From Bacteroidota bacterium (GTDB taxonomy: Bacteria > Bacteroidota > Ignavibacteria > SZUA-365), in contig JACZJN010000191.1 of the NCBI GenBank assembly GCA_014860565.1, forward strand, positions 1-45,282: a DNA stretch of 45,282 nt. Direction: 5' to 3'. Shown piece by piece: positions 2 through 23,289 of the stretch (position 1 is the first letter of the stretch; each line of letters opens with the position of its first letter). The notes under the pieces were generated by a model. The model worked only from the letters and a program-made list of their open reading frames with translations. It did no database searches and had not been told where the DNA came from. Made by a program: the position numbers and the translations under genes.

Positions 2-1045
2 CCGGGGACCGATCCTCCCCCTCCCGGGACTGGCGGAACACCTGACCCTACCGGCACGGCCCCCTCGGGGACGCCTGCCCCTTCGTTGGGTGATTGGACG
101 TTCAACCCGATGGATCTCGCGCCGTATTCGATGGTCCCCGGCATGATCGGCGGCCTTGCCGGCGCAGTCGGAGCCTTCGCGAAGGACCCTGAATTCGACC
201 GTCATGGGACGGACCATTTCTGGCGGGACCATTACAAGGAGCAGTTTGCAGGCGCATACGAAGATGCCCGTACCGACCCGTACCGTGGCAACTTCTTCCG
301 CAACGCCAACCGTTCGCATCTGACGGCTACCAATGCGATGCTCGAGAATTCCGCGAACCTGCGGGCCCGTCAGGCCAACAACACCGGCATGATGTTCGGC
401 GGTGGCTATTCACGCGACCTTGCCTCGATGGCCCCGGGATTCTACGCGCAACAGGCAGGCAACCTTGCACAAGGATATGCCATTCGCGATCGCAACATTC
501 AGGCAGAGAACGCCTTCGTCGGCCACAATACCGACGCCCAGCAGGACCTGTTCGTCAAGGAAGTCCAGATGGGGACGCATCGTGACTACAACAAGGGACT
601 GAATCTGGTCAATAAAGTAGCGGGCGGCGCGGTCGAAGGCGCATCACTCGCGGACGGCCTGTACAATACGATGTGGACACGCGGCGTCAATCGTGACCTC
701 CTCGCCAATGAATACGGCCAGTGGACGGAGAACGCACCGCCCGTGCCGGACGTACCGATCACGGATCCGAACGGCGAGGACGGTCTTCCCTACGATTACG
801 GACTCCCCCCAATAGCATCTCAAAACGCGACCGTCGGACGCCGGACGCTTGGTCTGCAGCCGACCCCCGAGGAGGCATGGGCGCCGGGTGGGCAGTTCGC
901 GCGCGGCGGCATGTTCAACTGGGGCAGCGGCACACTCTCGCCGAGTTACAGCGGGCCGATTCGGCCGAACGTGACACCGCGCATGAAATCCATGTTCAAC
1001 AACCCGTACCGCCGTAGCCCTCTTACGCCGTACCGTCAATTATAA
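2..1045 (+). CDS. Phage virion/ejection-type protein, 5' end off window
   Basis: The frame is open from the left edge, so the true start is probably outside the window; the first in-frame candidate, a TTG at 86, has no clear ribosome site and is preceded by an uninterrupted Pro/Gly/Thr-rich segment. The remaining sequence is rich in Gly, Ala, Asn and Arg. It has a hydrophobic Gly/Ala stretch near the TTG (MVPGMIGGLAGAVGAFA), a helical middle with many Gln and Asn, and a Pro/Gly-rich tail. I recognise no family. It heads a same-strand series that leads into the giant 4,512-residue protein and is followed within 15 bp by the next gene. By position it could correspond to the first of the three internal core (ejection) proteins of T7-like phages, but this is inference from gene order only. 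Confidence 0.75.
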   Translation, partial: PGTDPPPPGTGGTPDPTGTAPSGTPAPSLGDWTFNPMDLAPYSMVPGMIGGLAGAVGAFAKDPEFDRHGTDHFWRDHYKEQFAGAYEDARTDPYRGNFFRNANRSHLTATNAMLENSANLRARQANNTGMMFGGGYSRDLASMAPGFYAQQAGNLAQGYAIRDRNIQAENAFVGHNTDAQQDLFVKEVQMGTHRDYNKGLNLVNKVAGGAVEGASLADGLYNTMWTRGVNRDLLANEYGQWTENAPPVPDVPITDPNGEDGLPYDYGLPPIASQNATVGRRTLGLQPTPEEAWAPGGQFARGGMFNWGSGTLSPSYSGPIRPNVTPRMKSMFNNPYRRSPLTPYRQL

Positions 1046-1336: not shown

Positions 1337-2770
1337 ATGCCACCTCTCGCACACGAAAATCCCTTCCTCTCGGGCATGAAGACGGCCGTTACCGTCGCCC
1401 GTCAGACGACCGCCGAACAGGACGAAACCCTGCGTCGTGCGGCCGTCGCGAATTTCATGCAGAATGCCGGCAAGGTTGCCCAGCGCATCAATGAACGCGA
1501 GTCCGCGCTTGCATCCGAACATGCCAAACGTGTGCAGTCGCTGATGAAGGAATCGGCGGTCGAAGCCGGCGGGAACGGGAAGACATCCGACGAGATGATC
1601 GCCAAGGCCTACAACGACCAATTGGCGCTCTCGATGGAGAGTTACGCATTCGAAGCCCAACGGGCAGGCGATGCGGCACTGGCCCGCAATGTCATGACCC
1701 GCGCGCCGTACACGCTTTCGCGCATGAACGGCAACGAGCAGGAGGCCGTCAAGATGCTCCTTGGCGACGACATCCACGGCGCCGTTTCCCGCATGTCGTC
1801 CGCCTTCGGTAAGTCCGGCATGCCCGCGATGCCGAAACCCGGGGAGATGTACGACTTCAAGGAAATCAATTCCGGTGGCCGCAGCTATATCGGTCGTGTG
1901 AACAAGCTGACCGGCAAATTCGAATTGCAGGACACGTTGGACGATCCGATGATGCAGCTGAACATGGCCGACAAGATGCTGGGGCTCGAGAAGACCGGCC
2001 TCGACATGGAGAAGATCCGTCATGACATGTCGGCCGGCGCAACGAAGACCATTGACGCCGGAACCCAGCGCATTGTCGAGAAGCGGGCGAAAGTGCCTGC
2101 CAATTGGAACGCGATGACCGACGCGCAGAAGGAAGCATTCGTCGCGCAGAACGCGGCCGCGATGGGATGGGAAAATCCGCTCACGGAAATCGACCCCGTG
2201 TCCGGTGAACTCATACTACGGAAGTACTTCAACGACATACGACCGACATCGGGCGGCGATGGTGGCGGATTCAAGGCCAAGGACATTGCAGGCTATCTGC
2301 TCAAACGCGGCGAACATGACGGCACAACCAGTCAGCAGTTCGGACTGGCGAAGACTTATCAGCAGCAGGCCGAAGCAGTCAAGCGGGAAATGTCGCGTGC
2401 CTACGACATCGCCGACGATACCAAGCGCACACAGGCGCTGCGTGACCTCTCGAAGAAGTACGGCAAGGATCCGCAGGTCTACTACAACGAACTGAAGACC
2501 AAGGAACAGACCGCATGGAACACCGGCGGGAAGGCGCAGGATCAGGCCAACGAAGTCCGCGGCGTTCTCGAAATGGCAGGCGTCCCGCAACAGTACCATG
2601 ACACGGGGTGGCGGAAAAGCCGCGACGCGACATTGGCAAAATGGAAGGCGCTCACTCCCGACCGTCAATCGAAGTTCCGAAGCTACTGGTCCAAAATGTC
2701 GCCACAGGAAAAACAGAAATACGGCAACGACATCTACCACTACTACTACGCCTTCAGCCAAGGCAAGTAA
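1337..2770 (+). CDS. Helical phage structural/ejection-type protein
   Basis: This 477-residue protein begins one base after the preceding stop, with AGGGAAG just upstream, so the two genes are probably translationally coupled. It is almost entirely helical and polar, rich in Ala, Lys, Gln and Met, with no signal peptide or membrane segment. The C-terminus is rich in Lys, Gln and aromatic residues (a run of Tyr near residue 468). I recognise no catalytic motif. Its place directly before the giant protein, and its alpha-helical composition, resemble the middle internal core protein of T7-like virions. That is a positional inference, not a sequence match. Confidence 0.75.
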   Translation: MPPLAHENPFLSGMKTAVTVARQTTAEQDETLRRAAVANFMQNAGKVAQRINERESALASEHAKRVQSLMKESAVEAGGNGKTSDEMIAKAYNDQLALSMESYAFEAQRAGDAALARNVMTRAPYTLSRMNGNEQEAVKMLLGDDIHGAVSRMSSAFGKSGMPAMPKPGEMYDFKEINSGGRSYIGRVNKLTGKFELQDTLDDPMMQLNMADKMLGLEKTGLDMEKIRHDMSAGATKTIDAGTQRIVEKRAKVPANWNAMTDAQKEAFVAQNAAAMGWENPLTEIDPVSGELILRKYFNDIRPTSGGDGGGFKAKDIAGYLLKRGEHDGTTSQQFGLAKTYQQQAEAVKREMSRAYDIADDTKRTQALRDLSKKYGKDPQVYYNELKTKEQTAWNTGGKAQDQANEVRGVLEMAGVPQQYHDTGWRKSRDATLAKWKALTPDRQSKFRSYWSKMSPQEKQKYGNDIYHYYYAFSQGK

Positions 2771-2788: not shown

Positions 2789-5700
2789 ATGGGCAAACAG
2801 AAGGCCAACGAGGTAAAGACACCCACCGAATCCTTCAACGACCCGAACGCAGAATTTGATGCTGCCTGGAATAGGGTCAACACAGGCGCGTCTTCCCCTT
2901 CATCCCAACCATCCCTCCCCGCCGTAAAGACGGAAGATCCGAACGAGGAGTTCGATCGTCTCTTCGATGACGGACGCGCAACGGGCAAGCCGTCGTCCGA
3001 AGCGCAGCCGTCCGGTGTTGCCGTCGACCGTCTGCCCCGCATGGTCCGTGTGGCCGAGAAGGTCAACAAGTACATGGCCGGGATTCCCGAACGTCGGCGC
3101 TTCCGCATCTACCGCGAAGGGGAAGGCGACGTCACGGAACGCAAGACCGTCCATTACTCCATTCCAGGCATTGAGGAAGTCGACCAGCATGGCAACCGCC
3201 ACAAGCTGCCGGACATCAAGGCCGTGTGGCGCAACTATGACCCCGACACCGGCGAACCCTTGCGGGACTTCGAATTGGAGAAGATCCCCGACGGCGCAAA
3301 GATCGACAGCGAGGAGTCCTTCAAGGAAGCGGACCTCTCGCCGTACTATCATGCCGCCAAACGCGCACGCTCGACGAACAAGGCCGTCGACGCCTTCAAC
3401 GATGCCCGTCCGCTGTTGCGTGACCTGCTTTCGGCCGTACCGAATTACAGCAGCGGGCGTCCCGGTGACATGATGGATACGAGTGGCCTCCAGCAGATAC
3501 AAGGCCGTGGCGGAGTCACGAACGAGGCCAGTGACTTCAGCCCCATGCGGTCCCTCCTGCAGAAAGGCGTCCGCGACTTCGTCCTCAACAGTCCCGTCGA
3601 CATTCAGCGTGTCGATGCCCCTCGACAGGAGACGAAGGGAGACCGCCTGCAGCGTCAGGAAGACCGTGGCAAGTTCCTTGGTTTCGAGAAAGGCGACATC
3701 AAGGAGACGGCCAAGAAAGTCGGACGTGATGTCCTCGATCTGGCAATGTTGGGAGCGACCGAAAAGGCATTTGGCGTCAACGCAGTGACACCTGACCAGG
3801 CATTTGCGGGCAACTCCGCCGTCAAGGACCTTGTCGATATCTACTACAATCCGTCCAATGCCGTCGAATACTGGCTGGGGAATGCCGGCAAGATCGCCAC
3901 GACGTATCTCAAGTATGCCACGGGCGCGAAGGTGGCGGAAACGGCCCTCTCGCAAGGCGTATCGGCCATCACGAAGGGCATCGTCAATCCCGGCGGCATC
4001 ATCCAAGGTGGCGCCGTAACCGACCTTGCTGAAATCCTCAATCGCGCCGTCCTTGCGCCGATGCGCGGACTGACCCCGATGGGAACGGAAGAGGCCCGTG
4101 AATGGATACAGAAGACCTACCCGAAGATGTACACCGGCGGCATGACCGATGACGAAATGCGGGACTTTGCCAACGCCGTCAAACGTGTGCAGACGATGAC
4201 ACTCGAGAACGAAGCCGTCGCGGATGGCAAATGGTCCGGCCTCGATCTTGTCCCGACGGAATACCTGACGGGATTCATGCGGACGCGGCAAGGCAAGATG
4301 GCCACGAAAGGCCTCGTCGACTGGATGAATACCATGACGTTCGGCGGGACGCAGACCGATCGTGATCTTGATACGATCAACGCCGTAGGCCGTCAGGCCT
4401 TTTCCTACGACGGCGGGGACGAGGATTCCGGCCACATGATGAACGACTTCAGAAAGGCAAGCGAACGGCTGGAACCGCAGGACCTCTGGGACGTTGTCTG
4501 GCAAGGTGTTGGCGGCGCGGCCCCGATGTTGCCGTTCTTCGCCAAGTCCCTTGAGAAGGCAGGCGGGAAGGCCTTCCCCATGCTCGATACGCTGAAAAAG
4601 GTCGGCCTCGATGTCCAAGGTGTCGTGCGGGCCATCCCCGGCGCTACCAAAATGCTGATGCGTGACATCGGTATGGCGGGAGTCGATACAGGCCTGTTTG
4701 CCCTTCGTGCACATGCCCTTGGTCTGGCACAATGGAGTGACACCGACTGGAAGGACGCACACCAGGGATTCAAGACGCTGCTGGAACGCGGCGCGACGCC
4801 GGTACAGGCCCTTGTCAACAGCTACGGCATGCGTCTTGGATCGAAGGCCTTGGAGAACTTCACCGAAGCAGGCCATCTTGAGCTCTTCCGTGCATCCCGC
4901 GCATTGACTGACGGGGCTTTGCGACGGACGGCAAAGGCCATGCTCGCCATGCTGAACGAAGGCCTTGAGGAACGCGGGGCCGACTGGGGAACATGGGTGG
5001 CCGAAGAACTGACCGACCTGCCGGATGACTTGCGCCAGCAGCTCGCCGATCCAGCGGAACTCAACCTGCTCAAGTCCATCATCAGCGACACGAAACTGGA
5101 CGACAAGCAGATGGAAAAGGCCATCGGCGACTTCCTGATTTCCGGCATTCTCGGTATCGGGATGGGCGCCATGCGTGTCGGTGTCGGTGGCCTCGCGCAT
5201 CCGATTAGCACGCCGCGCAAGCTGTTCCGTGATGTCAAGAATGGCTTCATCAATCCGCGCCAGCAGGCGGAAGAGTACGCCAAACGCTACTCCTTCGACA
5301 TCAATGCCGTGACAGGCGAACGTCTGACGCCGGAACAGTACGAAGAGAAGGTCGACGCCCTGACGAAGCTGATCCAACTCAACAGCTTCAAGACGGCGGA
5401 ATACGGCATGGATACCATTGCGAAGTCGTTCTCCATCGGACTGCATTCTCCCGTCAACGTCGACGGATTGATCGAGTCCGAAGGCATCGAGAAGGACCCG
5501 AAAAAGTGGTTCATGTCGAAGGAAGAACTGACGGAATATTTCCCGACGGAAAAGCAGCGCCTGCGGAAGGAATGGAAGCAGACGAAAGAGGATGCGAAGA
5601 AGCACTTCACGAAGGCGTGGGAGTCTTTCGGCAAGCACCGGACCAAGGCAAAGGATGCGACGGCAGAAGCAGTAGACAACACGATGGCGAATGGCCCTTC

Positions 5701-8700
5701 TGCGGACATCCCGTCTGCGGACAGCCCGTCTGCGGACAGCCCGTCTGCCGATGCCCCGCCGAAAGAGCCGACCTTTGTACGCCGTGGCGCGGTCGATCCC
5801 GAAGGGACGAATCTTCTAGGCCTTGAGGAAATCGGGCCGTACATTCGTCAGCATTTCCCCGAACTTGCCGACCTCTACAATTCCAACGAGGCGCTGTATG
5901 AGGCCGTCGGCGAAGTCATTGCAAAGGGCCTTGTGCCGACGATGCACGGGACGGAAGCGATTCGTCAAGAGGAACTGGACGACTTCCTCAACGCGACGCT
6001 GAACGAGAACGAGATGTCGGATTACATGCAGGCGCGACTGGAATGGGAGAACCGTCAGGCACAGGAGACGCCCGCGCCGTCGGTGACACAGCCGATTGAT
6101 GTGCAGCAGACGACCGAACAGACGGCCCCGCCACCTCCGACCGAGCAACCGGCGGAAGTCAGTCCACTTGACCGCATCCTGGACGAAAACGTGCCGCCGG
6201 ACGCCCCTCCCCCTTCGGGACCGGAAGATGACGGCTGGCATTACCAGTTGCAGGAAGAACCATCCCGCGTTGCTCACCTTCAGCAGGAATCCGGCATGGA
6301 CTTGCTGTCGTCTGACCCTTCGTTCGCCGAGGAGATCGAAAACGACCTTCGTGAGAAATACCCGTCCGTCAACCTTGGGACGATCCATGGCGAGATGCAT
6401 GACGGCAAGCCCGTCCTCGGCCGCGCCAACACGAAGGCCATGCAGGCGCTCTACGATCCTGAACTGGCCAAACGCGATACGATCCCGCATGAATACCTTC
6501 ACCTGTATGTTGACCTCTTCAAGGACAGCGACATCGTCAAGGCCGGTCTCGAGCAGTATGGTGACGAAGAAGCACTTGTCCAGGCCGCAGGCAGCGACTT
6601 CGCCGAACGCAAGGACGACGGATTCATCAAGACCTGGCTGAAGGACTTCCTCAACTGGCTGAAGGGTATCTTCGGCAAGCAGGACGCAGCCTACGATCTC
6701 GCCCGTCGTTTCGACTCCGGCAAGGACTCGTTCTCCTTTGTTTCCCGCGCGAAGGCCGTCCAGCGCGAAGCCGGATGGAAATATCAGGAAGGCGAAGCCA
6801 AACCGCATCACATGCCCAAACGGGAGTCCTTCATCGTGCTCAAGGACAACGGCACAAAACTGGCCACGCCTGGCTATCGTGTCTCCATCCCCGATGTCGA
6901 TCGCGGGTTCTTCGTGGCGCATCCGACGGTCGAAGGCAAGTCCTCAAGCAAGTGGATCCTCTATGACGAGGAGTCCGGCCTTGCCGCCACCGCGCAGCTG
7001 CCGACGCGCGCCGACGCCATAGCGGCCTTCACCGACCTATTGAAAGGCGACCCAACGATCCTGCAGAAGATGGAAGAAGAGGCCATGCAGGCGATGGAAC
7101 GGCAGGTACAGGCGTCTCAAATGTCGGCGACATACGTGGAACCGGCTGAAACCGGAACGACCGACACAAAGAAGCAGTCTGCAAGCGAACGGCCATATGC
7201 ATTCCGCCGTCTGTCCTATCAGCCGCTTGCCGGGACAGTCGAACGTGCCACCGACATGCAGACGACACTCGAACGCATCATCGGCGGCGATACGAGTCTG
7301 TCCGACAGGCAGGTACGTGACCTCCTTGCCATGCGTGACGAGCGTGGCCGCCCGCCTATCGACAAGATGGTCGAGATGATCGACTTGTCGACCGATGCCG
7401 ACTATGACGAGGAGGCCCTTCGCAGCTGGCTTATCGCCAATCACAAGCGGCAGGAAATCCCGCTGGTCAGCGTTTCCATTCCCGACTACGGACCGGATCC
7501 GACCAAGGGCCAGGTCGAACATTCGGCAGACAATCCCGTCATGATCGATGTCGCGCCCGCCGGTTCCGCGCAGTACAATGGCGAAGGCGATCTTGTCCAG
7601 ACCTTCCGTCAGCCGTCGAACATGCTGGAACTGACGGACGTGCGCGCCTTCCTTGACGCCTATGGACTGACGCCCAACGGGCGGATGTCAGGCCCCGTCG
7701 GCGAGGTGACGACCGTTCGCGTGGGTGGGAAGGTATGGAACCTCGGCGTACTGGCCGCACGAAGGCCGGTGAAATACTCCCGCATGGAAGCGACGCTTGC
7801 CGAGCATGGCATCTACATGATGGGATCCGGCGGCAAGAATGAAGTCTTCCCGACGATCAATCTCGATCCGTCGCAACCTATATCGCAGAAGGCCGCGCAA
7901 GCCCTTCTGACGGCAATGGACGCGACCGAAGAGTACTGGAAGAAGAAAATCGGCGCGGACGTATGGCGGCGGTCGGCAACCGGCAAGGAATTCGCGGTAC
8001 GGCGCGAGCGGATGCAGGCCGATGAGAACGGAAATATTGACGTCAAGAAGATGACGCCGCATGACCGCATGTTTGCCGTCTACGCTGCCTACAACCAATG
8101 GCTGCAGGACGAGACCTGGGCGGGCAACGGCAACAAGATCGTCAAGTACGGCAAGGAACTCACATCGGCCGACAAGCCGACCGTTACGACCGAAGCAGTC
8201 AACTTCATCGACGAACTTCGTGAAGGCATCGAGAAGACGATTCCGTCCCTGCGCGGGAAGGACCGCCGTCTGATGGAACAGGTCCGCGACGGACTGCGCA
8301 TCCTCACCCCTTCGGAGAGCGAACTAGCGGCCCGTATGGCCCTCGACGGAAAGGAACTGCTGGCCGGCGGACTGGTCATTGATCGCAAGACCGGAGACAT
8401 CGACGTCGCCACGGCCTTCGTCGACCATGACCATTACGAGGGCAAGACGCCGCACGGTGACGGCGGCAATGTTGCCTCTCCATTGGTGTCACTGTTCCTG
8501 TCCTACTTCCAAGGCGGCGACGAACGCGCGAAACTCCTCAAGCCGCGCATCATCAGTCCAGGAACGGATTTCAGCCTGCTGGTCAAGTCCATGCTCGATG
8601 TCATGGACGGGCAGATGCTTTCGGCCGCGCATGCCGTCGGCGTCGGCCTGCTGGTCTTCGATTCAAGCCTCAAGCTGGGCAAGTCGACCATTGCCAACAA

Positions 8701-11700
8701 GGACGAAGCGGGACAGCCGATGCCCCTTCCGAAATACAGCACGTTCGAACAGACGGCGTTGTCCAATGGCAAGGTGACGGGCATCCCCGTCCGGCGTGTG
8801 CCGGTCGAGAAGTTCACGCTGGTCAACGACCCCGAAGGCAAGGAAATCGATGACACGACCCTCGGTATGCAGGGTATGGCTGCCGTCCCGACAAGCCCGA
8901 TGCACTTCCCGCATCTGGCCGACAACTACGATGCCATGCGTGACTTCTACCGCATGCAGAGTCAACGGACGGTGGACCTGATAAAGCGATTCAACGACGA
9001 CGCCGCCTTCCGCACGGCGCTGTATCGTCGACTGGCACGGAACAACAGCGACCCCGGCGCGGCGCCATTCGTGGCCATGATCGAGGAGGCGGGACGGAAC
9101 GTCGGTCCGCTGTACTATCTCCCGCATCTGCAGATCGCCTTCAACGGCGCGGCGCATTCACATCTGCTGTCTGCTGTTTCGGACAAGTCCCGCAGCGGAT
9201 CTTCGCGCGTCATCGGTCAGTCGTTGAAGCTGACGCCGGACTTCGGCACGGCAACAGGCACGAACATGCTGGCTGTCCAGCGCGCGAACAATGGCGACGT
9301 GGAGTCCTTGCGGAAGTATTTCGACATCGAGGACATCTTCCCCATCGCCGATCGCCGGAAGCACCTGACGCCCGAACAGCAGAAAATCCTGCGGGATGAA
9401 ACGGCGAAGCTGATTGTCCAACGTGACACGATTCAGAAGGACCTTGTCGCGCTCCCGCCGTCGGCAATGGATCAGGTTGCCAAGCTGAACAAACAGTTTA
9501 CCGACGTCCAGCGCCGCATCGACGAACGAAGCGTCATCAACGAGAAGCTGATTGATTCCTACCTTGCCCAAAATGGCTACCGCCGCGTCGGCCAGCATTA
9601 CGTCAGCGGGACAGGCCACCTGAAGGAGACCATCGACGTCGACGGGCAGAAGGCCGTCCCGATCATCGTCAACGAAGAGACGGCGCGGAAGATGGGATGG
9701 AAGCCTGGGACGAAAGTCCTCGTCACGGCCATTCCCGCGGACGCCCCGCATTCGACCAAGGCCTGCGTGATTGCGGGCGTATCGAATTCCGTGGCGCACC
9801 GCATGACATGGTCGGCACTGCATACGATCAACCTCGGCAAGGATCATGACGGCGATGCCCTCTATGTCCGTGGCGCGTCCGACGGCTACTGGCGCGAGAA
9901 GGCCCGTCAATGGAAGAACCACCTCGACGGCAAGTACACGTTCGTCGGCAAGGAAGCGCCGCAGGAAGACCTTGATCTGCTGGCGGAATACAACGCATAC
10001 GCCGATGCCGGATGGAAGGAGATGCCGCAGGAGTCCTTCGAAAAGATATGGACGCTGTTCGCGGACCCGCAGGTACAGTCCTATGCAACAGACCTCTACA
10101 AGAAGTTCAAGATCCCCGGGGCCTTCACAGATGAGGCGTCGCGTTTCATGCAGTCGATCTTCGGCGCGAAACCGATGGACAACGTCCCGACGCCGCTCGA
10201 CACCTTCGGACGACGCTGGCTGGTCGCCAACTATGTCGGCGAAACGGCAGGCGTCATCGGCAAGGTTGCAGCGGCCCGTCGTCAGATCGCATGGATCGTC
10301 CAGGCTTTCCCCGAACTGCTGGATACCGATGCCCCGACGAAATTCCCCGGCGCGACGCGACTCGACCTTGTGGACATGGCAACGACCATTCTTGTCAACC
10401 ATGCTGTCGACGCCCCCGCGCAGGAGCACCTGTTCAGCTACAACTTCGACCCCAACCAGTTTGTCGAATGGGCCATCAGAATGCTGGCAAAGGATGAAGA
10501 GACGCAAGACACGTTGTCAAACTATCTTGGCGCCTTCAAGGACGCACAAGTTGCAGTAAGAGGCGTACAGAACGACAAGAAGATGGCCTCGGCGGAACAT
10601 ATCGCCTCCCTTCATGCCATGTCCAATCTTGAGTCGCTGGAAGATTCGTCCATCATGTCCGCGTTCGTCGCGCCCTTCGGCAAGAAATTCCCGCTGTGCA
10701 TGTCGGCCGACTTCTACAAGACCATCGTTGCCCCGCAGGTTGTCCGGCACATGGTCCAGTCCATATTCGGGCCCCAGGCATCGATGGCGAAAGCCGGCAT
10801 GGTCGAGAAAGGCAAATCCAGTCGCGATCTGACCGAACTGCAGAAGGAAACGGTATTCGGTATGATCATGCAGGCATGGGAAGAAGGCCGGAAGATGGAC
10901 AACCGTGAAGTGGAAGATAATGTCACACGCGAGATGCTGCGCGGTCCCGTCACCATCCTGACCCACATGACGGCCGCCATGGAGTTCTCCCGCGAGGCCT
11001 TGCCGGTTCCCCCGCAGGAGAAGGACTTCATGGTCAGAATCCCCGGCGGCAAAGTGGAACTCGATGTCGCGTCCTTCAACGCCGCACAAGAGACCTACGA
11101 AGGCAAGGTGAAGCAGTTGCGCGATGCGTACGACCGGTTCGGCAGCTACAATCCTGCCTATTTCGACAACCCGATGCAGACCATCGTTCCTCATATGCTG
11201 GACTCGATCACGAAGACGGCATGGACTCTGCAGCAACCGCGCGTCTACATGACGACGGGGCTCGAGAAGTCGTCCGGCTATCAGTTCGCCATCGACCGCA
11301 ATGTCGGCTTGTCGATGTCCGTCAACGGCGAAGCCTTTGTCCCCGTATCACCGAAGGCGCTTGCGGCGTTCTTCACCGGCGACCCGCGACCGATGTTCGT
11401 GGCTGCCCGTAAGCAGATCTTCGACATCATGCTGGAAGCCGCCCGTCTCGGGGATGTCAACCAGTCGGATCCGTTGCACCTGCTGGCGCCGGCGGAAGCA
11501 AACCGCATGATGGAAGACATGGTGGAAACCTACCTTGGGCTGCAGCCGGAAGGAGGAGAGCAGGTTGCCCGTCATCACAAGCTGTCGGATGCCTTGCTCC
11601 TGTCCCTCATGCAGGAACGATTCCTGACCCTTCAGCCCTATCAAAAGACGGCACATGTCGAATTGCGTCAAATTGAACGGTCGTCCCCCCTCGCACGGAC

Positions 11701-14700
11701 GTCGTATCAGGCCGTCGGCAACACGGCCGGAATCAAGGACGATGGATCCCTGCCTGAACTCGGCGACTTCGGGACCGCGGCGCGTCTGAACGTGCTGGCA
11801 TTCCGGTATCTGACGCCCGCCCTTCGCAGTCGCTTCCTTGAAGCACTCAACGAAGTGAAGGCCGTCGATGTATGGTTCAAATCCATGGGCGATGAAATGG
11901 CCGTCGGTCAGCCCACGGAAAGCGATGTGGCGACCGGCAATGACCGCGCCTTGCAGGAGGCCGAAGACCTCGACTATGAGATCGCGGCCGCTGATGGGAT
12001 GGCAAGCGACCTTATCCGTGACCTGCAGGACAATGAAGTCGTCGTCCAGATCGGACCCGACAAGATGGCCGCCCGTGTCGTGTCAGTTCGCAGTCGTCTT
12101 GAAAACATCCTCGACCTTATCGACGATGGGCTGATCACCGTCGACGACCGACTCAAGAAGAATGTCCGCATAGCCGTCCAGGGCCTCAATGCCTTCGGCG
12201 CGGCGTCCGGCATTGCCTCTCTGTCCCTGCGTGGACTGGTGGGCGCATTACGCGGCGTCGTCAAGGCCTTGCGGAAACTCTCGGCCGTCATTCATCCGTA
12301 CATGGTGTCCGGCAACATCCACCGCGAAGCGCCTATCAGGACATGGAATATGACCGACCGCGTCGGCGTGAATCTCCGGCGGGCCTTGTTCTCTTATGCC
12401 GGTCAGCGTGTCCGCATCTTCAGCAATTCCGTTCAGGACCTGCTTTCCTACACACGCGAAGGCATGACAGGCTGGTTCAGGAGCAGCGTCGTCATGTCCG
12501 ACTTCGACATGGTCCTCGCGGCGATGCGGGCCATGGGCTACGAAGTCTCGACTGCCCGTCGCATGTTCACCGACACCGTCCGCGCGCAAGTCGGCGAAGC
12601 CTGGGGCCATGCCAAGCATTTCTACAAAAGCGAGAACGAACAGGACAAGTATCGCGAATGGATGCGTGACATCGTTGAAGAGATGCACGACGGTGCGCTG
12701 CTGGGCCTTCGCCTGATTCACAATGGCGAGAAGTGGATGTGGCTGATGGGCAAGGACACGACGTTTGAGTACAGTCACTTGGACCCGAATTCGACGGACT
12801 TTGATGGCCGCATCCTCAGCTTCCTGTCAAAGGAGATGATCGACAAATTCGGCAATCGCCGGATGGCAATCGAGGCGGCGCGTCTTATCATGCGTCTGCG
12901 CCGGATGGTGGCGGAGAATGCTTCCAACGTGCTGCATAACCACGCTTCCATGCTGGAAGACCTCGCCGCGATGGCAAAGTCCCCGTCGATCCGTGACAAG
13001 TATATCGAACAGGCGAAATCCTACAAGGCCATCATCAAGACCATTCAGGCAGGCAAACCGTACTTCCCCCTCTCCTACAACAACATGGCGGCGGCTGTCG
13101 TCAACGGGGAAGCCGACAACCATATCGAGATGCTGGCCGCCACGGCATCGGCGGAATACTTTGCCGCCAATCCCCCGGGCGATATGTCGCCTGAACAGGT
13201 GGCGGAACTGCGCGACGCGATACAGACCAAGGCCCTTCTCGATGCCATCTATTCGTCCGGCCTCGGTGGACAGGAGATTGTGCGCTCCATCCTGCAGAAG
13301 CCGAAGGAAGAACGTCTTGAAGCAGCCAAACGGCAGATGGCGGTCCTTTTCGAGAACTCGCATGTCCGGCTGGGAGGCGGCTATCTCGAGGCCGGAATGG
13401 ACTCGAACGCCATGCACCGTGCCGTCAATTACCGCGCCGTCCGCGAGAGCAAGCCGGAATACACCGGCCTGAAGCATGACCCCGAAAAGTATGTCACCTA
13501 CGACATCATCGATTCCCTCGACAAGATGATGGACAACCATCTCAACGGCATGTTGGGGACATATTGGTCCATTCTGCATAATCAGTACGTCAAGCCTGCC
13601 TCGGGCATGTTCGAGAAGGCCTCGGAAGAGATCGAACGGCGTGTGGCGGAAGTCTTCCATATGAACATCTACACGAAGGTTATCCCGTGGTCACGCCTCG
13701 TCCGTGGTGACGACATCAACATGACGATTCAGGACCCTGAAGAAATCTTTCTTGGCGACGTGACCGACACGATCTGGCATGAACGGACGATGAACGTGCG
13801 CGTCCATCGAGTTCTTGCCGGCCGCAATGGCGAGAATGCCTACATCGTCGGCATGTCCGGTCAGAATGGCCCCGTGTACTGGCTGGTGGATCCCCACGCC
13901 GACAGCATTACGCTCGTCGACGAGGACGGCAACCCGCGTCAACGCAGGACACGCGACGGACAACTGGTCCCGATGGTGTCGAAGTCGAAGCTGGATGTGG
14001 ACAAGAAGACGGGCCTTGTGGCCTTCCATACGAAGGTACGCGACTATATCCCGTGGAAAGAGGAACGCATGCGTCGTCGTGCGAATGCCAGCCTGAAACT
14101 GGCAAACGACGATGCCTATCTGACCCGTATGCGGGCCATCGAGAAGCAGCGACGGGAGATGTGGAAGAAACTCAACACCATCGGCGGCTTTTCGAAGCTG
14201 GGGTTCAACCCGCCTTCGGTCGTCAACAACAGCAAGTACTATCTCGCCTCGGCATGGTGGCACACGGGCAAGTTCATTCCCGTCGGTCAGGCGACTATGA
14301 AGCAGCTGCAAGGCATGATCGGCGAAGGACGGACCGAAGAGCAGCAGAAGATCGGCGAAATGCTCGCCCGCGCGCTCGATGCCTTGCCGAACATGTACGA
14401 CTGGCGTTTCTTCACACAGGCGACCTCGATCGGCGCTGAAGTCGACGATGCGACGATGGCCAAGTCCTGGCTGCAGATCATGTCCGACTTCAACGAGGCA
14501 ATGGAGATGGCGTCCGTTGAAGCGCAAAGCCGCGGCCTTGACGGGCAGCGTTCTTCGGTCTTCATTTCGCAGAAGGCATCCGATGCCCTCTTCAAGAAAT
14601 ACGGACACCGCATTGAGGCCTACTTCTCGAAAGCAGGCATGGCGAAGCTGTATGCAACCACCATGGGCGGCGGGTATTGGCTCTTCCAGAAGACGGAATC

Positions 14701-16327
14701 GTTCAACCGCAACATTGCGACCATCACGACACTGTTCCAGACGCATTCCTTCATGGGGCAGTTCTATGACCCGTTGGGGACCGGGGAAGCAGGCAAGTTT
14801 GCGCAGCTTCCGGCCAAGGCGCAGGCAATCCTGATGCGCCAATGGGTCCTCTACGCCCGCCAGCAGGACGAGAACATCAACTACGACTACTCGCGTATCA
14901 TGCGGCCGAAATGGTTGCGGGCGCCGATGATGGAGTTCATGGGCAAGTTCGCCATCTTCTCGAACGCTGCATGGAGTCAGCGTCTTCAGAACATCAGCGA
15001 GGCCCGCAAACTGTACTCGATGGGACGGTCGGCCGACATGCTGTTTGCCGATGAGCGCGGTAGACTTGGATCCAACCGCAAGTGGTGGAAGTCCCGCATG
15101 AATTCGAAGACGTTCATCTCCGCCGCCGATATTCCCGCATCGGAATGGTCCTCGTTCGTGAAGAATGTCTACGGATTCACCGACGAGGAAGGCATCGAGT
15201 CGGCCTGCAACCGTATCGCCGAAATGCTCGAGAAAGAGGGCATCACGGTCGAGGCCGCGCGGTTCAATCCGTTGGCCCGTGCCGTACGCTTCTCCGCCAT
15301 ATACCCGCTACAGATGGCCGTCCGCGCCTACTTGTGGAATGCGTTCGCCATGACGGTCGAACCGATGTCGGACTTCGTCATGGGGTGGCTTGACCTTTTC
15401 GACATGTTCGGTCCGCCGGATGACGAAGACGAACTGCAAGAGGCCCTTGCCTCGATCTACCCCGACGGCGATCCATTTTGGGACAACCCCGACAACCTGG
15501 ACGCCATTTTTGAAGACCCGCTGTACAAGCAGTACCGCGAGAAGAAATTCGAATCCATCCTGAACCGGCTGACGTTCTCGTCCCCCGCCGGCGGCCTTGT
15601 CATCTCGCAGGCACTCAAGTGGATGGGTGCCTATACTTTCGGTCCGCTTGCCGGCGCGGACTACCGTCCGAAGCCACCGGAACTGCTGCAGAACGTCTTC
15701 CGTATGGCTTCGACGCGGACCTTCATGGAATACCTGTCCGATGTCCTCAAGGGACCGGAGGAAGGCAAGGTCGAGGACTTTTTCATCGACCTCTTCCGCG
15801 GCATCCTCCCGACGCAGTTTACGTATTGGGAAGACAAGATGCGGCAGGAAGCCAAGAACGTCCTCAAGACCAGTTACCCTCTTGCCAACGAGAAGGACGC
15901 AGGCGGTGGCATGTGGAAGACTTCCCGCGTCGATCCCGTCGAGAAGCAGGCGAAGGCCAACATCCAGCGTGTCCGCAACGAGTCCCGTAAGGAAGGCATT
16001 GTCGGCGTCCCTGTCCTCGACGAACTGTCGGCGATGTTCGTCACGAAAGGCGACATGTGGCTCTTCATGGGCGACCGTGACCGTACGCAACTCAACAGCA
16101 TCTACGTCATGTTCGAACGCGCGCGCCTCGGCAGTCCTGATGCCTACGAGAACATCATGTCGGATCCGGTCAAATACCCGCCGCAGGCCTTCGATGCCTG
16201 GCTGAAATTCATGAAGGAACGCAAGATACCGGCCACCATGGATCCGAAATGGGTTGCTGCCTACATGGACAAGGCGTGGCCGGAAAAACGTGTCGAGAAC
16301 GTCGAGGTGCGGAATATTATGGAATAG
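2789..16327 (+). CDS. Giant 4,512-residue phage polyprotein with zincin and DxDGD RNA-polymerase-like core
   Basis: The ATG follows GAGGAG by nine bases and the frame is uninterrupted for 13.5 kb. Visible parts, in order: a disordered acidic N-terminus; long helical regions with Gly/Ala hydrophobic patches (about 330-800); a four-fold PSAD repeat linker (about 970-989) and Pro/Gln/Thr linkers (about 1090-1160); a zincin motif HEYLH (1234-1238) with candidate third ligand Glu1260/1261; then a region with two-barrel RNA polymerase features. These are D1940-G, K1962 and K1965, the strand VLVTAIP (2310-2316), the catalytic-type motif DHDGD (2352-2356), and NYVGETAGVIGKV (2481-2493). The last 2,000 residues are helical and unassigned. 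Family knowledge: DxDGD holds the Mg-binding Asp triad of RNAP beta', YonO and crAss-like virion RNAPs, and some crAss-like giant proteins combine RNAP and zincin domains. Inference: a virion-packaged, injected, possibly self-cleaving polymerase. The RNAP assignment is moderately sure; existence of the CDS is near certain. Confidence 0.93.
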   Translation: MGKQKANEVKTPTESFNDPNAEFDAAWNRVNTGASSPSSQPSLPAVKTEDPNEEFDRLFDDGRATGKPSSEAQPSGVAVDRLPRMVRVAEKVNKYMAGIPERRRFRIYREGEGDVTERKTVHYSIPGIEEVDQHGNRHKLPDIKAVWRNYDPDTGEPLRDFELEKIPDGAKIDSEESFKEADLSPYYHAAKRARSTNKAVDAFNDARPLLRDLLSAVPNYSSGRPGDMMDTSGLQQIQGRGGVTNEASDFSPMRSLLQKGVRDFVLNSPVDIQRVDAPRQETKGDRLQRQEDRGKFLGFEKGDIKETAKKVGRDVLDLAMLGATEKAFGVNAVTPDQAFAGNSAVKDLVDIYYNPSNAVEYWLGNAGKIATTYLKYATGAKVAETALSQGVSAITKGIVNPGGIIQGGAVTDLAEILNRAVLAPMRGLTPMGTEEAREWIQKTYPKMYTGGMTDDEMRDFANAVKRVQTMTLENEAVADGKWSGLDLVPTEYLTGFMRTRQGKMATKGLVDWMNTMTFGGTQTDRDLDTINAVGRQAFSYDGGDEDSGHMMNDFRKASERLEPQDLWDVVWQGVGGAAPMLPFFAKSLEKAGGKAFPMLDTLKKVGLDVQGVVRAIPGATKMLMRDIGMAGVDTGLFALRAHALGLAQWSDTDWKDAHQGFKTLLERGATPVQALVNSYGMRLGSKALENFTEAGHLELFRASRALTDGALRRTAKAMLAMLNEGLEERGADWGTWVAEELTDLPDDLRQQLADPAELNLLKSIISDTKLDDKQMEKAIGDFLISGILGIGMGAMRVGVGGLAHPISTPRKLFRDVKNGFINPRQQAEEYAKRYSFDINAVTGERLTPEQYEEKVDALTKLIQLNSFKTAEYGMDTIAKSFSIGLHSPVNVDGLIESEGIEKDPKKWFMSKEELTEYFPTEKQRLRKEWKQTKEDAKKHFTKAWESFGKHRTKAKDATAEAVDNTMANGPSADIPSADSPSADSPSADAPPKEPTFVRRGAVDPEGTNLLGLEEIGPYIRQHFPELADLYNSNEALYEAVGEVIAKGLVPTMHGTEAIRQEELDDFLNATLNENEMSDYMQARLEWENRQAQETPAPSVTQPIDVQQTTEQTAPPPPTEQPAEVSPLDRILDENVPPDAPPPSGPEDDGWHYQLQEEPSRVAHLQQESGMDLLSSDPSFAEEIENDLREKYPSVNLGTIHGEMHDGKPVLGRANTKAMQALYDPELAKRDTIPHEYLHLYVDLFKDSDIVKAGLEQYGDEEALVQAAGSDFAERKDDGFIKTWLKDFLNWLKGIFGKQDAAYDLARRFDSGKDSFSFVSRAKAVQREAGWKYQEGEAKPHHMPKRESFIVLKDNGTKLATPGYRVSIPDVDRGFFVAHPTVEGKSSSKWILYDEESGLAATAQLPTRADAIAAFTDLLKGDPTILQKMEEEAMQAMERQVQASQMSATYVEPAETGTTDTKKQSASERPYAFRRLSYQPLAGTVERATDMQTTLERIIGGDTSLSDRQVRDLLAMRDERGRPPIDKMVEMIDLSTDADYDEEALRSWLIANHKRQEIPLVSVSIPDYGPDPTKGQVEHSADNPVMIDVAPAGSAQYNGEGDLVQTFRQPSNMLELTDVRAFLDAYGLTPNGRMSGPVGEVTTVRVGGKVWNLGVLAARRPVKYSRMEATLAEHGIYMMGSGGKNEVFPTINLDPSQPISQKAAQALLTAMDATEEYWKKKIGADVWRRSATGKEFAVRRERMQADENGNIDVKKMTPHDRMFAVYAAYNQWLQDETWAGNGNKIVKYGKELTSADKPTVTTEAVNFIDELREGIEKTIPSLRGKDRRLMEQVRDGLRILTPSESELAARMALDGKELLAGGLVIDRKTGDIDVATAFVDHDHYEGKTPHGDGGNVASPLVSLFLSYFQGGDERAKLLKPRIISPGTDFSLLVKSMLDVMDGQMLSAAHAVGVGLLVFDSSLKLGKSTIANKDEAGQPMPLPKYSTFEQTALSNGKVTGIPVRRVPVEKFTLVNDPEGKEIDDTTLGMQGMAAVPTSPMHFPHLADNYDAMRDFYRMQSQRTVDLIKRFNDDAAFRTALYRRLARNNSDPGAAPFVAMIEEAGRNVGPLYYLPHLQIAFNGAAHSHLLSAVSDKSRSGSSRVIGQSLKLTPDFGTATGTNMLAVQRANNGDVESLRKYFDIEDIFPIADRRKHLTPEQQKILRDETAKLIVQRDTIQKDLVALPPSAMDQVAKLNKQFTDVQRRIDERSVINEKLIDSYLAQNGYRRVGQHYVSGTGHLKETIDVDGQKAVPIIVNEETARKMGWKPGTKVLVTAIPADAPHSTKACVIAGVSNSVAHRMTWSALHTINLGKDHDGDALYVRGASDGYWREKARQWKNHLDGKYTFVGKEAPQEDLDLLAEYNAYADAGWKEMPQESFEKIWTLFADPQVQSYATDLYKKFKIPGAFTDEASRFMQSIFGAKPMDNVPTPLDTFGRRWLVANYVGETAGVIGKVAAARRQIAWIVQAFPELLDTDAPTKFPGATRLDLVDMATTILVNHAVDAPAQEHLFSYNFDPNQFVEWAIRMLAKDEETQDTLSNYLGAFKDAQVAVRGVQNDKKMASAEHIASLHAMSNLESLEDSSIMSAFVAPFGKKFPLCMSADFYKTIVAPQVVRHMVQSIFGPQASMAKAGMVEKGKSSRDLTELQKETVFGMIMQAWEEGRKMDNREVEDNVTREMLRGPVTILTHMTAAMEFSREALPVPPQEKDFMVRIPGGKVELDVASFNAAQETYEGKVKQLRDAYDRFGSYNPAYFDNPMQTIVPHMLDSITKTAWTLQQPRVYMTTGLEKSSGYQFAIDRNVGLSMSVNGEAFVPVSPKALAAFFTGDPRPMFVAARKQIFDIMLEAARLGDVNQSDPLHLLAPAEANRMMEDMVETYLGLQPEGGEQVARHHKLSDALLLSLMQERFLTLQPYQKTAHVELRQIERSSPLARTSYQAVGNTAGIKDDGSLPELGDFGTAARLNVLAFRYLTPALRSRFLEALNEVKAVDVWFKSMGDEMAVGQPTESDVATGNDRALQEAEDLDYEIAAADGMASDLIRDLQDNEVVVQIGPDKMAARVVSVRSRLENILDLIDDGLITVDDRLKKNVRIAVQGLNAFGAASGIASLSLRGLVGALRGVVKALRKLSAVIHPYMVSGNIHREAPIRTWNMTDRVGVNLRRALFSYAGQRVRIFSNSVQDLLSYTREGMTGWFRSSVVMSDFDMVLAAMRAMGYEVSTARRMFTDTVRAQVGEAWGHAKHFYKSENEQDKYREWMRDIVEEMHDGALLGLRLIHNGEKWMWLMGKDTTFEYSHLDPNSTDFDGRILSFLSKEMIDKFGNRRMAIEAARLIMRLRRMVAENASNVLHNHASMLEDLAAMAKSPSIRDKYIEQAKSYKAIIKTIQAGKPYFPLSYNNMAAAVVNGEADNHIEMLAATASAEYFAANPPGDMSPEQVAELRDAIQTKALLDAIYSSGLGGQEIVRSILQKPKEERLEAAKRQMAVLFENSHVRLGGGYLEAGMDSNAMHRAVNYRAVRESKPEYTGLKHDPEKYVTYDIIDSLDKMMDNHLNGMLGTYWSILHNQYVKPASGMFEKASEEIERRVAEVFHMNIYTKVIPWSRLVRGDDINMTIQDPEEIFLGDVTDTIWHERTMNVRVHRVLAGRNGENAYIVGMSGQNGPVYWLVDPHADSITLVDEDGNPRQRRTRDGQLVPMVSKSKLDVDKKTGLVAFHTKVRDYIPWKEERMRRRANASLKLANDDAYLTRMRAIEKQRREMWKKLNTIGGFSKLGFNPPSVVNNSKYYLASAWWHTGKFIPVGQATMKQLQGMIGEGRTEEQQKIGEMLARALDALPNMYDWRFFTQATSIGAEVDDATMAKSWLQIMSDFNEAMEMASVEAQSRGLDGQRSSVFISQKASDALFKKYGHRIEAYFSKAGMAKLYATTMGGGYWLFQKTESFNRNIATITTLFQTHSFMGQFYDPLGTGEAGKFAQLPAKAQAILMRQWVLYARQQDENINYDYSRIMRPKWLRAPMMEFMGKFAIFSNAAWSQRLQNISEARKLYSMGRSADMLFADERGRLGSNRKWWKSRMNSKTFISAADIPASEWSSFVKNVYGFTDEEGIESACNRIAEMLEKEGITVEAARFNPLARAVRFSAIYPLQMAVRAYLWNAFAMTVEPMSDFVMGWLDLFDMFGPPDDEDELQEALASIYPDGDPFWDNPDNLDAIFEDPLYKQYREKKFESILNRLTFSSPAGGLVISQALKWMGAYTFGPLAGADYRPKPPELLQNVFRMASTRTFMEYLSDVLKGPEEGKVEDFFIDLFRGILPTQFTYWEDKMRQEAKNVLKTSYPLANEKDAGGGMWKTSRVDPVEKQAKANIQRVRNESRKEGIVGVPVLDELSAMFVTKGDMWLFMGDRDRTQLNSIYVMFERARLGSPDAYENIMSDPVKYPPQAFDAWLKFMKERKIPATMDPKWVAAYMDKAWPEKRVENVEVRNIME
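5696..5755 (+). repeat. Four tandem 15-bp units in the giant gene
   Basis: Four consecutive 15-base units (consensus ccgtctgcggacagc, with small differences) encode PSADI, PSADS, PSADS and PSADA at residues about 970-989. The units keep the frame and sit in a linker just after a Lys-rich coiled coil, so copy number could vary without disrupting the protein. Confidence 0.85.
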
Positions 16328-16350
16328 CCGTCCGAACAGCACCACCTGTC

Positions 16351-16405
16351 GGCCGTGCCGGTCGAGATGCGTCCGTAATTTGGGGCATGTCTCACCGGCA
16401 CGGCC
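16351..16405 (+). promoter_or_regulatory. Long hairpin immediately before the endolysin start
   Basis: A perfect 12-base inverted repeat (GGCCGTGCCGGT at 16351-16362 and its complement at 16394-16405) can be extended inward by GAGA/TCTC past one bulged C. The stem ends four bases before the amidase ATG at 16410 and covers the place where its ribosome site should be; no Shine-Dalgarno is visible. No U-run follows, so it is not an obvious intrinsic terminator. It may restrain endolysin translation or mark an RNA-processing point between the giant gene and the lysis genes. Confidence 0.6.
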
Positions 16406-16409
16406 CGTT

Positions 16410-17069
16410 ATGCTCGCCACCATCAATACCAATCTCCAATTGCCGAAAGGCGCCTATCGCGAGGCGGTCTTCGAAAAACGGCATATCGTCCTTCATTACA
16501 CGGCAGGCTACAATGCCGCCGGAGCACTGGCCACATGGAAGAAGACGCCTTCCCGGGATGGAACGGCATTCATCGTCGATCGTGACGGACAAGTCTACCA
16601 GGTATTCGACCCACGCTTTTGGGCCGTGCACATCTACCGTCATCAGGCAGATGAAAATCCGGCCTTCTACACCCTCGAAAAACAGTCGATCGGCATCGAG
16701 ATCGTCAACCTCGGTCCGCTGACCTTGGGGACGGGCGACAAGAACAAGAGCGTCCTCTACACCTACACGGGCAAGAAGTACTGCACACTGGCCGATACTG
16801 CGCTCTACGTGCAGGATACATGGAAGGGCAAGCATTACTGGCAGGCGTACACGAACGCGCAATACGAGGCCGTACGGACGCTGTGCAAGGAGCTGGAACG
16901 GGACTTCCAGATTCCGATGAATGCCGCGCCGCTTGGCGACCGTCTGAACGTGTGGGATGTGAAGGCCCTCACCGGCTATCGTGGCGTCACAACGCATTGC
17001 AACTACCGCAAGGACAAGTTCGACGTCGGTCCGGCATTCCAATGGGCGAAAGCAGGACTGCATGAATAA
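16410..17069 (+). CDS. N-acetylmuramoyl-L-alanine amidase (endolysin)
   Basis: This 219-residue protein is an Amidase_2/PGRP-type zinc amidase that cuts the MurNAc-L-Ala bond of peptidoglycan. Family landmarks are the first zinc His in IVLHYTAG (H29), the core FIVDRDGQVYQVF, the IGIEIVN strand, and the C-terminal THCNYRKDKFDVGPAF with the second His and the Lys-Asp-x-Gly loop. There is no signal peptide, so it needs a holin, which fits the small membrane proteins encoded downstream. The frame is open further upstream, into the end of the giant gene, but the protein fold starts at LPKGAYREAV and the first good ATG is at 16410. It overlaps the next gene by eight bases. In T7 the homologous enzyme also inhibits phage RNA polymerase; whether this one does so is unknown. 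Confidence 0.92.
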   Translation: MLATINTNLQLPKGAYREAVFEKRHIVLHYTAGYNAAGALATWKKTPSRDGTAFIVDRDGQVYQVFDPRFWAVHIYRHQADENPAFYTLEKQSIGIEIVNLGPLTLGTGDKNKSVLYTYTGKKYCTLADTALYVQDTWKGKHYWQAYTNAQYEAVRTLCKELERDFQIPMNAAPLGDRLNVWDVKALTGYRGVTTHCNYRKDKFDVGPAFQWAKAGLHE

Positions 17070-23112: not shown

Positions 23113-23203
23113 GGGGGCCTCCAGGGTCAACAGTGTGTTGACCTTGAGACTTTCATGAAACCATTTCTTGTGTCAGCAATCGGCCAAAATGGCCTGTTTT
23201 CAG

Positions 23204-23289
23204 CGGAGAGACTGGGATTCGAACCCAGGGTACCCATAGGGCACAACGGTTTTCGAGACCGTCCTATTCAACCACTCTAGCATCTCTCC
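23204..23289 (-). tRNA. tRNA-Ser(CGA), likely phage attachment site
   Basis: On the minus strand the sequence folds as a class II tRNA: acceptor GGAGAGA/TCTCTCC, anticodon stem ACGGT/ACCGT around loop CTCGAAA (anticodon CGA), a long variable arm (GCCC...GGGT) and T-arm CTGGG-TTCGAAT-CCCAG. The discriminator is G, as in bacterial tRNA-Ser, and CCA is not encoded. Its 3' end points to the integrase, so the prophage presumably integrated at the 3' part and restored the gene. The matching att copy would be beyond the left edge. Confidence 0.93.

What the first reader, a model, noticed from the sequence alone, without database searches (positions are those of the whole stretch)
8500..10300. DxDGD-type RNA polymerase core inside a 4,512-residue phage polyprotein
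The sequence shows DHDGD at residues 2352-2356 of a single 13.5-kb frame, preceded by a VLVTAIP strand (2310-2316), a DG element (1940-1941) with Lys1962/1965, and followed by NYVGETAGVIGKV (2481-2493). These occur in the order expected for the two double-psi beta-barrels of YonO-like and crAss-like virion RNA polymerases (DxDGD is their catalytic signature). The phage, however, has a T7-like late order, an integrase and its own terminase, so it does not look like a standard crAss-like phage. A temperate phage that injects a multisubunit-type polymerase as part of an ejection polyprotein would be a notable variant.
Basis: partly seen in the sequence, partly recalled or inferred. Interest (0 to 1): 0.9.

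Follow-up and report, generated by a model that had tools for sequence, protein, structure and literature searches.

The report
Prophage giant protein with RNA-polymerase core
A virus dormant in a bacterial chromosome encodes a single 4,512-amino-acid protein that carries the catalytic barrel of an RNA polymerase plus a protease-like domain, probably injected into the host cell with the viral DNA to start transcription; such enzymes are known from a few virus groups, and this is a very divergent example in a virus that can integrate.

Summary
Confirmed: one uninterrupted 4,512-aa frame (2789-16327 +) carries DHDGD at residues 2352-2356. The bare motif is weak evidence (11% of shuffled copies have one), but the ~70 residues around it are not. 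A viral-contig scan found seven giant ORFs sharing this segment; their HMM hits residues 2295-2365 (E ~1e-9), far above controls. With phi14:2 gp66 (PDB 6VR4), a crAss-like relative and two same-phylum giant proteins added, the profile aligns with 2302-2561 (P 2e-7; 0 of 100 shuffles as good). So DHDGD sits in the beta'-type barrel (DPBB-A) of a two-barrel RNA polymerase. Bridge-helix and trigger-loop positions are collinear but not significant alone. A crAss-like zincin lies ~1,100 residues upstream, as in four relatives. AlphaFold was inconclusive (pLDDT 37 and 49). Only 1 to ~23 kb of the window is phage: terminase (not crAss type), amidase, and an integrase beside tRNA-Ser. Best reading: a divergent virion-type RNA polymerase polyprotein in an integrated phage. 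Packaging, ejection and activity are inferred.

The parts
2789..16327 (+). giant polyprotein, 4,512 aa, single open frame, no hydrophobic transmembrane-like segment
   Evidence: no 19-residue window above mean hydropathy 1.6
6326..6682 (+). zincin-like metallopeptidase domain (residues 1180-1298; HEYLH at 1234-1238, nt 6488-6502)
   Evidence: 36-37% identity to a crAss-like phage protein next to a DFDID RNAP polyprotein (MT835645, read with TAG=Q), phmmer 6e-21; hhalign of this pair to the zincins of four relatives prob 82%
8288..8293 (+). D1834-G1835, likeliest DG of DPBB-B (tentative)
   Evidence: aligned with D in 10 of 11 relatives by MAFFT --add; third-best of all positions for the DGxQ block, at offset -519 from DHDGD against -516 in L066
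8606..8611 (+).
   Evidence: present, but the spacing to later elements is short compared with relatives
8672..8674 (+). Lys1962, candidate conserved lysine of DPBB-B
   Evidence: column invariant in the alignments; upstream-only profile test borderline, 1 of 100 shuffles as good
9371..9571 (+). long helical pair, residues 2195-2261, between the two barrels: position of the clamp connector (assignment inferred)
   Evidence: most confident part of the 950-residue AlphaFold model, block pLDDT about 49-80
9632..9883 (+). DPBB-A (beta'-type double-psi barrel), residues 2282-2365
   Evidence: HMM of relatives E about 1e-9, controls at most 1.3 bits; hhalign 93.6%, P 2e-7; in register with P23-45 gp96, gp64 and phi14:2 gp66
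9842..9856 (+). DHDGD, predicted Mg2+-binding catalytic triad of aspartates
10220..10303 (+). bridge-helix-like segment, residues 2478-2505 (contains NYVGETAGVIGKV)
   Evidence: aligned with the (F/Y)NN.v.ak.tIGiA segment of relatives inside the 216-column match; G2491 in 11 of 11; not significant on its own
10379..10489 (+). trigger-loop-like segment, residues 2531-2567 (TTILVNHAVDAPAQEHLFSYNFDPN...)
   Evidence: best of about 4,470 positions of the polyprotein for the trigger block of the relatives, though below the 95% level of shuffles; D2541 in 11 of 11
2..1045 (+). phage gene cut by the contig start (at least 347 aa), no family match
1337..2770 (+). 477-aa gene directly upstream of the polyprotein, possibly another ejection protein (inference from position)
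16254..17069 (+). N-acetylmuramoyl-L-alanine amidase (endolysin)
   Evidence: PF01510 E 8e-16
18070..19785 (+). terminase large subunit, phrog_38 type (not the crAss type found beside a relative)
   Evidence: phrog_38 E 5e-70; relatives at 23-25% identity in diverse tailed phages
19733..20806 (-). possible terminase small subunit (weak match)
   Evidence: phrog_51 E 1e-4, PF03592 E 1e-3 below cut-off
22108..23130 (-). tyrosine integrase
   Evidence: phrog_1 E 5e-71
23203..23289 (-). tRNA-Ser(CGA), probable attachment site; chromosome beyond it
   Evidence: ARAGORN; host genes from about 23.5 kb on

Best explanation
The 4,512-aa protein is a virion-type polyprotein of an integrated (temperate) tailed phage. 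Its middle part (about residues 1830-2600) is a very divergent single-chain RNA polymerase of the two-barrel superfamily, with a DPBB-A carrying DHDGD, and it carries a zincin-like peptidase about 1,100 residues upstream, the same order as in four viral relatives. By analogy with phi14:2 gp66 and the tape-measure-fused RNAP of P23-45, the most likely mechanism is that the protein is made late, packaged, ejected with the DNA, perhaps cut by the zincin, and transcribes the first phage genes with Mg2+ held by the three aspartates. Shown: open frame, DPBB-A homology, zincin homology, integrase and terminase in the same element. Inferred: second barrel, polymerase activity, packaging, ejection, self-cleavage, early-gene transcription.
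For: HMM of seven viral relatives hits residues 2295-2365 at 23-24 bits, E about 1e-9, against at most 1.3 bits for 200 shuffles, the reversed slice and other windows of the protein. An 11-sequence profile with phi14:2 gp66 aligns 216 columns over residues 2302-2561, hhalign 93.6%, P 2e-7, 0 of 100 shuffles as good. The relatives look like RNAPs: their profile matches the phi14:2/crAss RNAP over 239 columns from DPBB-A to the trigger loop at 94%; a same-phylum giant protein matches solved 6VR4 at 2.8e-27. Direct in-register matches to P23-45 gp96. Zincin upstream in ours and in L066, L087, L099, L103. Block scan: the IPGE..RIP and DGD blocks are the best hits of the whole protein at the same mutual spacing as in L066. 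Position between a 477-aa gene and amidase/terminase.
Against: Outside DPBB-A the sequence match is not significant (downstream 17 of 100 shuffles as good, upstream 1 of 100). AlphaFold models are poor (pLDDT 37 for 950 residues, 49 for the DPBB-A alone) and the fold search with the latter found nothing. No Pfam, PHROG or PDB sequence match for the protein itself. No close relative was found. Capsid, portal and tail genes of the phage were not found, so virion structure is unknown.
Confidence: 0.72

Rival explanations
1. A relic: the ejection polyprotein keeps a DPBB-A inherited from an RNAP-bearing ancestor but has lost a working second barrel, so it is a structural or DNA-binding part and not a polymerase.
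For: Only DPBB-A is significant by sequence; DPBB-B, bridge helix and trigger loop are not individually significant.
Against: All three catalytic Asp are intact, the 4,512-aa frame is open, and K1962, Q2028, N2402, G2491, N2537 and D2541 fall on columns conserved in 9-11 of 11 relatives; a relic would be expected to lose the catalytic triad early.
Confidence: 0.15
2. A non-virion early polymerase (like YonO or P23-45 gp64) that is made after infection and merely fused to other domains.
For: Single-chain two-barrel RNAPs of that kind exist, one in a temperate phage (YonO in SPbeta; PMC5467207).
Against: The gene lies directly upstream of amidase and large terminase on the same strand and is 4.5k aa with a zincin, the build of ejected proteins; no resemblance to YonO in profile comparison.
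Confidence: 0.08
3. Chance or calcium-binding DxDGD in an ejection protein, unrelated to RNA polymerase.
For: A bare DxDGD occurs in 11% of shuffles; no curated RNAP profile matches.
Against: 70 residues of barrel sequence match, E about 1e-9 with clean controls, and the segment independently aligns to P23-45 gp96.
Confidence: 0.05

Closest known systems
Giant ORFs of environmental viral contigs (IMG/VR: L066, L069, L087, L099, L100, L103, L078), at least one on a contig with a crAss-type terminase
   Same: DxDGD-type DPBB-A, very long single protein, zincin 1,250-1,400 residues upstream in four of them, catalytic motif near residue 2350-2450 in the two that reach furthest upstream
   Different: most of them are 23-45% alike over hundreds to thousands of residues, ours matches only about 70 residues significantly; no phrog_38 terminase seen on their contigs, which may be fragments; no integration shown for them
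crAss-like virion RNA polymerase, phi14:2 gp66 (PDB 6VR4)
   Same: single chain, order of conserved elements, profile match in register; a crAss-like phage also has a zincin of our type next to the RNAP polyprotein
   Different: gp66 has DFDID, ours DHDGD; phi14:2 has crAss-type genes and is not known as a prophage
P23-45 gp96, RNAP fused to a 5,002-aa tape measure protein (PMC10770324)
   Same: DxDGD, giant virion protein with metallopeptidase, closest directly aligned known RNAP (28% over 83 aa)
   Different: RNAP is at the N-terminus of a tape measure protein with membrane domains, in a long-tailed Thermus phage; ours has the RNAP in the middle and no membrane-like segment
N4-like virion RNA polymerase (~3,500 aa, fused to zincins; PMC5512222, PMC12633501)
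   Same: giant ejected RNAP fused to zincin-like peptidases
   Different: N4 RNAP is of the T7 single-subunit fold, not two-barrel (established knowledge)
YonO (SPbeta prophage; PMC5467207)
   Same: single-chain two-barrel RNAP with a DNDGD motif in a temperate phage
   Different: about 840 aa, not a polyprotein; no profile match to ours

Membership tests
two-barrel (DPBB) RNA polymerases | DPBB-A with DxDxD catalytic motif | tested here: met
   HMM E about 1e-9, hhalign P 2e-7, clean controls
two-barrel (DPBB) RNA polymerases | second barrel DPBB-B with conserved lysine(s), N-terminal to DPBB-A | tested here: inconclusive
   K1962 and D1834 fall on conserved columns; upstream-only profile test 1 of 100 shuffles as good; AlphaFold uninformative
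two-barrel (DPBB) RNA polymerases | bridge helix and trigger loop after DPBB-A | tested here: inconclusive
   collinear inside the significant 216-column match, not significant alone; trigger block has its best position in the protein there
two-barrel (DPBB) RNA polymerases | DNA-dependent RNA synthesis | not testable with these tools
   needs a biochemical assay
crAss-like phages (Crassvirales) | crAss-type terminase, portal and capsid genes | tested here: inconclusive
   the terminase is phrog_38 type, not the phrog_6681 type of a relative's contig, which speaks against it; portal and capsid lie beyond the contig start
crAss-like phages (Crassvirales) | two-barrel vRNAP in a giant protein with an associated zincin | tested here: met
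   (for the RNAP, the DPBB-A part); shared with P23-45-type phages, so not diagnostic alone
P23-45-type tape-measure-fused RNAP | RNAP at the N-terminus of a tape measure protein with membrane segments | tested here: not met
   RNAP in the middle (2302-2561), no hydrophobic segment above threshold
virion (ejected) RNA polymerase | protein present in the virion and delivered to the host | not testable with these tools
   gene position and architecture only
YonO family | sequence/profile match to YonO | tested here: inconclusive
   no match in single-sequence profile comparison, which is too weak to exclude it

The most novel reading that the evidence does not exclude
A temperate tailed phage with a non-crAss terminase that stays integrated at tRNA-Ser and ejects a 4.5k-residue protein uniting a zincin and a deeply divergent DxDGD two-barrel RNA polymerase: a separate branch of virion polymerases used by integrating phages.
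Probability: 0.4. Interest if true: 0.75.

Novelty: new variant of a known kind. Interest (0 to 1): 0.58.

Why it matters
Two-barrel polymerases carried in virions are described in crAss-like phages, jumbo phages and P23-45-like Thermus phages. If active, this is a far-diverged member in an integrating phage with a different packaging module. It would let one ask how a lysogen keeps a self-sufficient polymerase silent, which promoters it reads, and whether the DxDGD-type polyprotein spread between phage lineages together with its zincin. The seven viral contigs and the giant genes found in genomes of the same phylum give a starting alignment for tracing the evolution of the two-barrel fold.

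Tried and rejected
Direct searches with the slice or other parts of the protein in Pfam, PHROGs, PDB, INPHARED phages, plasmids, IMG/VR (RNAP slice, two C-terminal slices, the terminase, the neighbour gene and the zincin) and GTDB genomes found no close relative; only the zincin matched, in MT835645. A scan with the P23-45 family found only P23-45. A pattern scan of genome contigs gave 104 stretches; of the 80 held, almost all read as frames of unrelated genes and none was confirmed as a relative. AlphaFold on 950 residues and on the DPBB-A alone was of low confidence; Foldseek and VIA-align on the latter gave no RNAP DPBB match, which is uninformative. Loci of the same phylum with a similar terminase have no related giant protein. 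Searches of the host genome for portal/connector families found nothing, so the rest of the phage was not located. Contig C98 carries a second tRNA-Ser copy but no clear left half of the phage. Full-length and flank-only HMMs gave no signal beyond DPBB-A.
Full report
WHAT IS THERE. The frame 2789-16327 (+) encodes 4,512 aa without interruption. A bare DxDGD turns up in 11% of shuffles of this protein, the extended G.D.DGD[AT][LF].[VI] in none of 2000, so the motif by itself proves little.

SURROUNDINGS. The window is a whole contig (C50) of a 223-contig draft genome. Phage genes visible: a gene cut by the contig start, a 477-aa gene, the polyprotein, an amidase (PF01510, 8e-16), a large terminase (phrog_38, 5e-70), a weak small-terminase candidate and a tyrosine integrase (phrog_1, 5e-71) beside tRNA-Ser(CGA). 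From about 23.5 kb on, the genes are bacterial: CsgG, a sigma-54 activator, an amine oxidase, an M28 peptidase, MFS, DUF5916. So this is the integrase-side end of a prophage, cut at its other side.

IS IT AN RNA POLYMERASE? Public profiles do not match, and no close relative was found in phages, IMG/VR or about 450 genomes with the slice itself. Direct comparison with known enzymes gave a first hint: residues 2282-2360 align with 709-787 of P23-45 gp96, the tape-measure-fused RNAP described in PMC10770324, in register through DxDGD (28% over 83 aa); single-sequence hhalign with gp64 and phi14:2 gp66 also put DHDGD on their catalytic motif, at weak scores.

A pattern scan of viral contigs then found seven giant ORFs with motifs such as YIPGE.VMMTRIPH.GP.F.GV.EVVGF..SNIIVPSEY...IGADHDGDALFVY, homologous to each other over hundreds to thousands of residues. 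An HMM of their cores hits our protein at 2295-2365 with 23 bits; 200 shuffles, the reversed slice and other windows reach at most 1.3 bits; a short HMM of the segment gives E 1.3e-9 in the 4,512-aa protein. The relatives look like RNAPs: their profile matches the phi14:2/crAss RNAP from DPBB-A through bridge helix and trigger loop (239 columns, 94%), and the contig of L069 carries a crAss-type terminase.

A DPBB-A profile (A7) also found giant proteins in genomes of the same phylum as the host. One, in G679 (3,735 aa, DFDVD), matches solved 6VR4 with E 2.8e-27. With it, a second (G567), gp66 and a crAss-like polyprotein added, the 11-sequence profile aligns 216 columns with our residues 2302-2561 (hhalign 93.6%, P 2.1e-7; the best of 100 shuffles scores 24.6 against 68.9). 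That alignment places NYVGETAGVIGKV on the bridge helix and TTILVNHAVDAPAQEHL on the trigger loop. The part after DPBB-A alone is not significant (17 of 100 shuffles as good). In the class of the host, G387 has a further fragment with DYDVD that aligns with our 2191-2384 (22%, E 0.007).

SECOND BARREL. Upstream alone the match is borderline (1 of 100 shuffles as good). The alignments put K1962 on an invariant lysine and, in MAFFT, D1834 on a D kept in 10 of 11. The spacing D1834-K1962 (128) resembles that in L087 (133 between D143 and K276, numbering), and the DGxQ block scores third-best at 1833, at nearly the offset seen in L066.

STRUCTURE. AlphaFold gave pLDDT 37 for 950 residues, with only the helical pair around 2195-2261 moderately confident, and 49 for DPBB-A alone. 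Searches with the latter are uninformative.

OTHER DOMAINS. Residues 1180-1298 are a zincin (HEYLH), 37% identical to a protein next to a 5,337-aa DFDID polyprotein of a crAss-like gut phage that reads TAG as an amino acid. Four of the seven viral relatives have an HE..H 1,250-1,400 residues before DxDGD; their zincin profile matches ours plus the crAss-like one with 82%. Iyer et al. [quoted passage not shown] No membrane-like segment was found.

MECHANISM. Most likely the protein is packaged and ejected with the DNA and transcribes the first genes, as reported for phi14:2 and P23-45 (PMC7886860, PMC10770324). In this phage only the sequence-level parts are shown.

COMPARISON AND NOVELTY. It is expected to work like a virion RNAP; membership in the two-barrel superfamily is met for DPBB-A and open for the rest. 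It is not a tape-measure fusion of the P23-45 kind by position of the RNAP and lack of membrane segments. The terminase argues against a standard crAss-like phage, but head genes are missing. Epsilon crAss-like phages have been proposed to be possibly temperate (PMC11054128), and YonO is in a prophage (PMC5467207), so lysogeny together with a two-barrel RNAP is not new in itself; the combination here is a new variant.

LIMITS. All functional steps are inferred.

Noticed in passing
G679:C11 (loci L215-L217; about 172.5-211.8 kb of the contig): Prophage-like region with an integrase gene fragment (phrog_1 4.8e-11), virion structural proteins, a 3,735-aa protein matching PDB 6VR4 (2.8e-27) and tRNA-Arg at the far end: a crAss-type virion RNAP in an apparently integrated element.
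   Followed up: partly
G567:C1 (L218-L220): Giant 5,143-aa protein with DFDVD, virion structural proteins, DNA polymerase and helicase genes inside a 1.6-Mb bacterial contig, suggesting an integrated crAss-like phage.
   Followed up: partly
G061:C3 (L227-L229): 86.8-kb contig of a same-class genome with a 5,416-aa DFDID RNAP polyprotein matching gp66 (E 1e-34), HEAFH at 2769: probably a crAss-like phage in the assembly.
   Followed up: no
MT835645.1 (L021): Unannotated gut phage record whose genes are open only if TAG is read as an amino acid; with TAG=Q it has a 5,337-aa RNAP polyprotein (DFDID) and an 1,117-aa zincin protein.
   Followed up: partly
window 23203-23289 and G000:C98:7509-7595: Two tRNA-Ser(CGA) copies identical over 83 bp; near the C98 copy lies a 58-bp stretch 81% like the window's integrase, perhaps an older element at the same attachment site.
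   Followed up: partly
G000, 11 places: The host draft genome has eleven matches to the phage integrase profile.
   Followed up: no
window 42319-43698: MFS transporter (PF07690) that matches unannotated 'Bacteriophage sp.' fecal records MT835920 and MT839477, probably bacterial sequence in those records.
   Followed up: no
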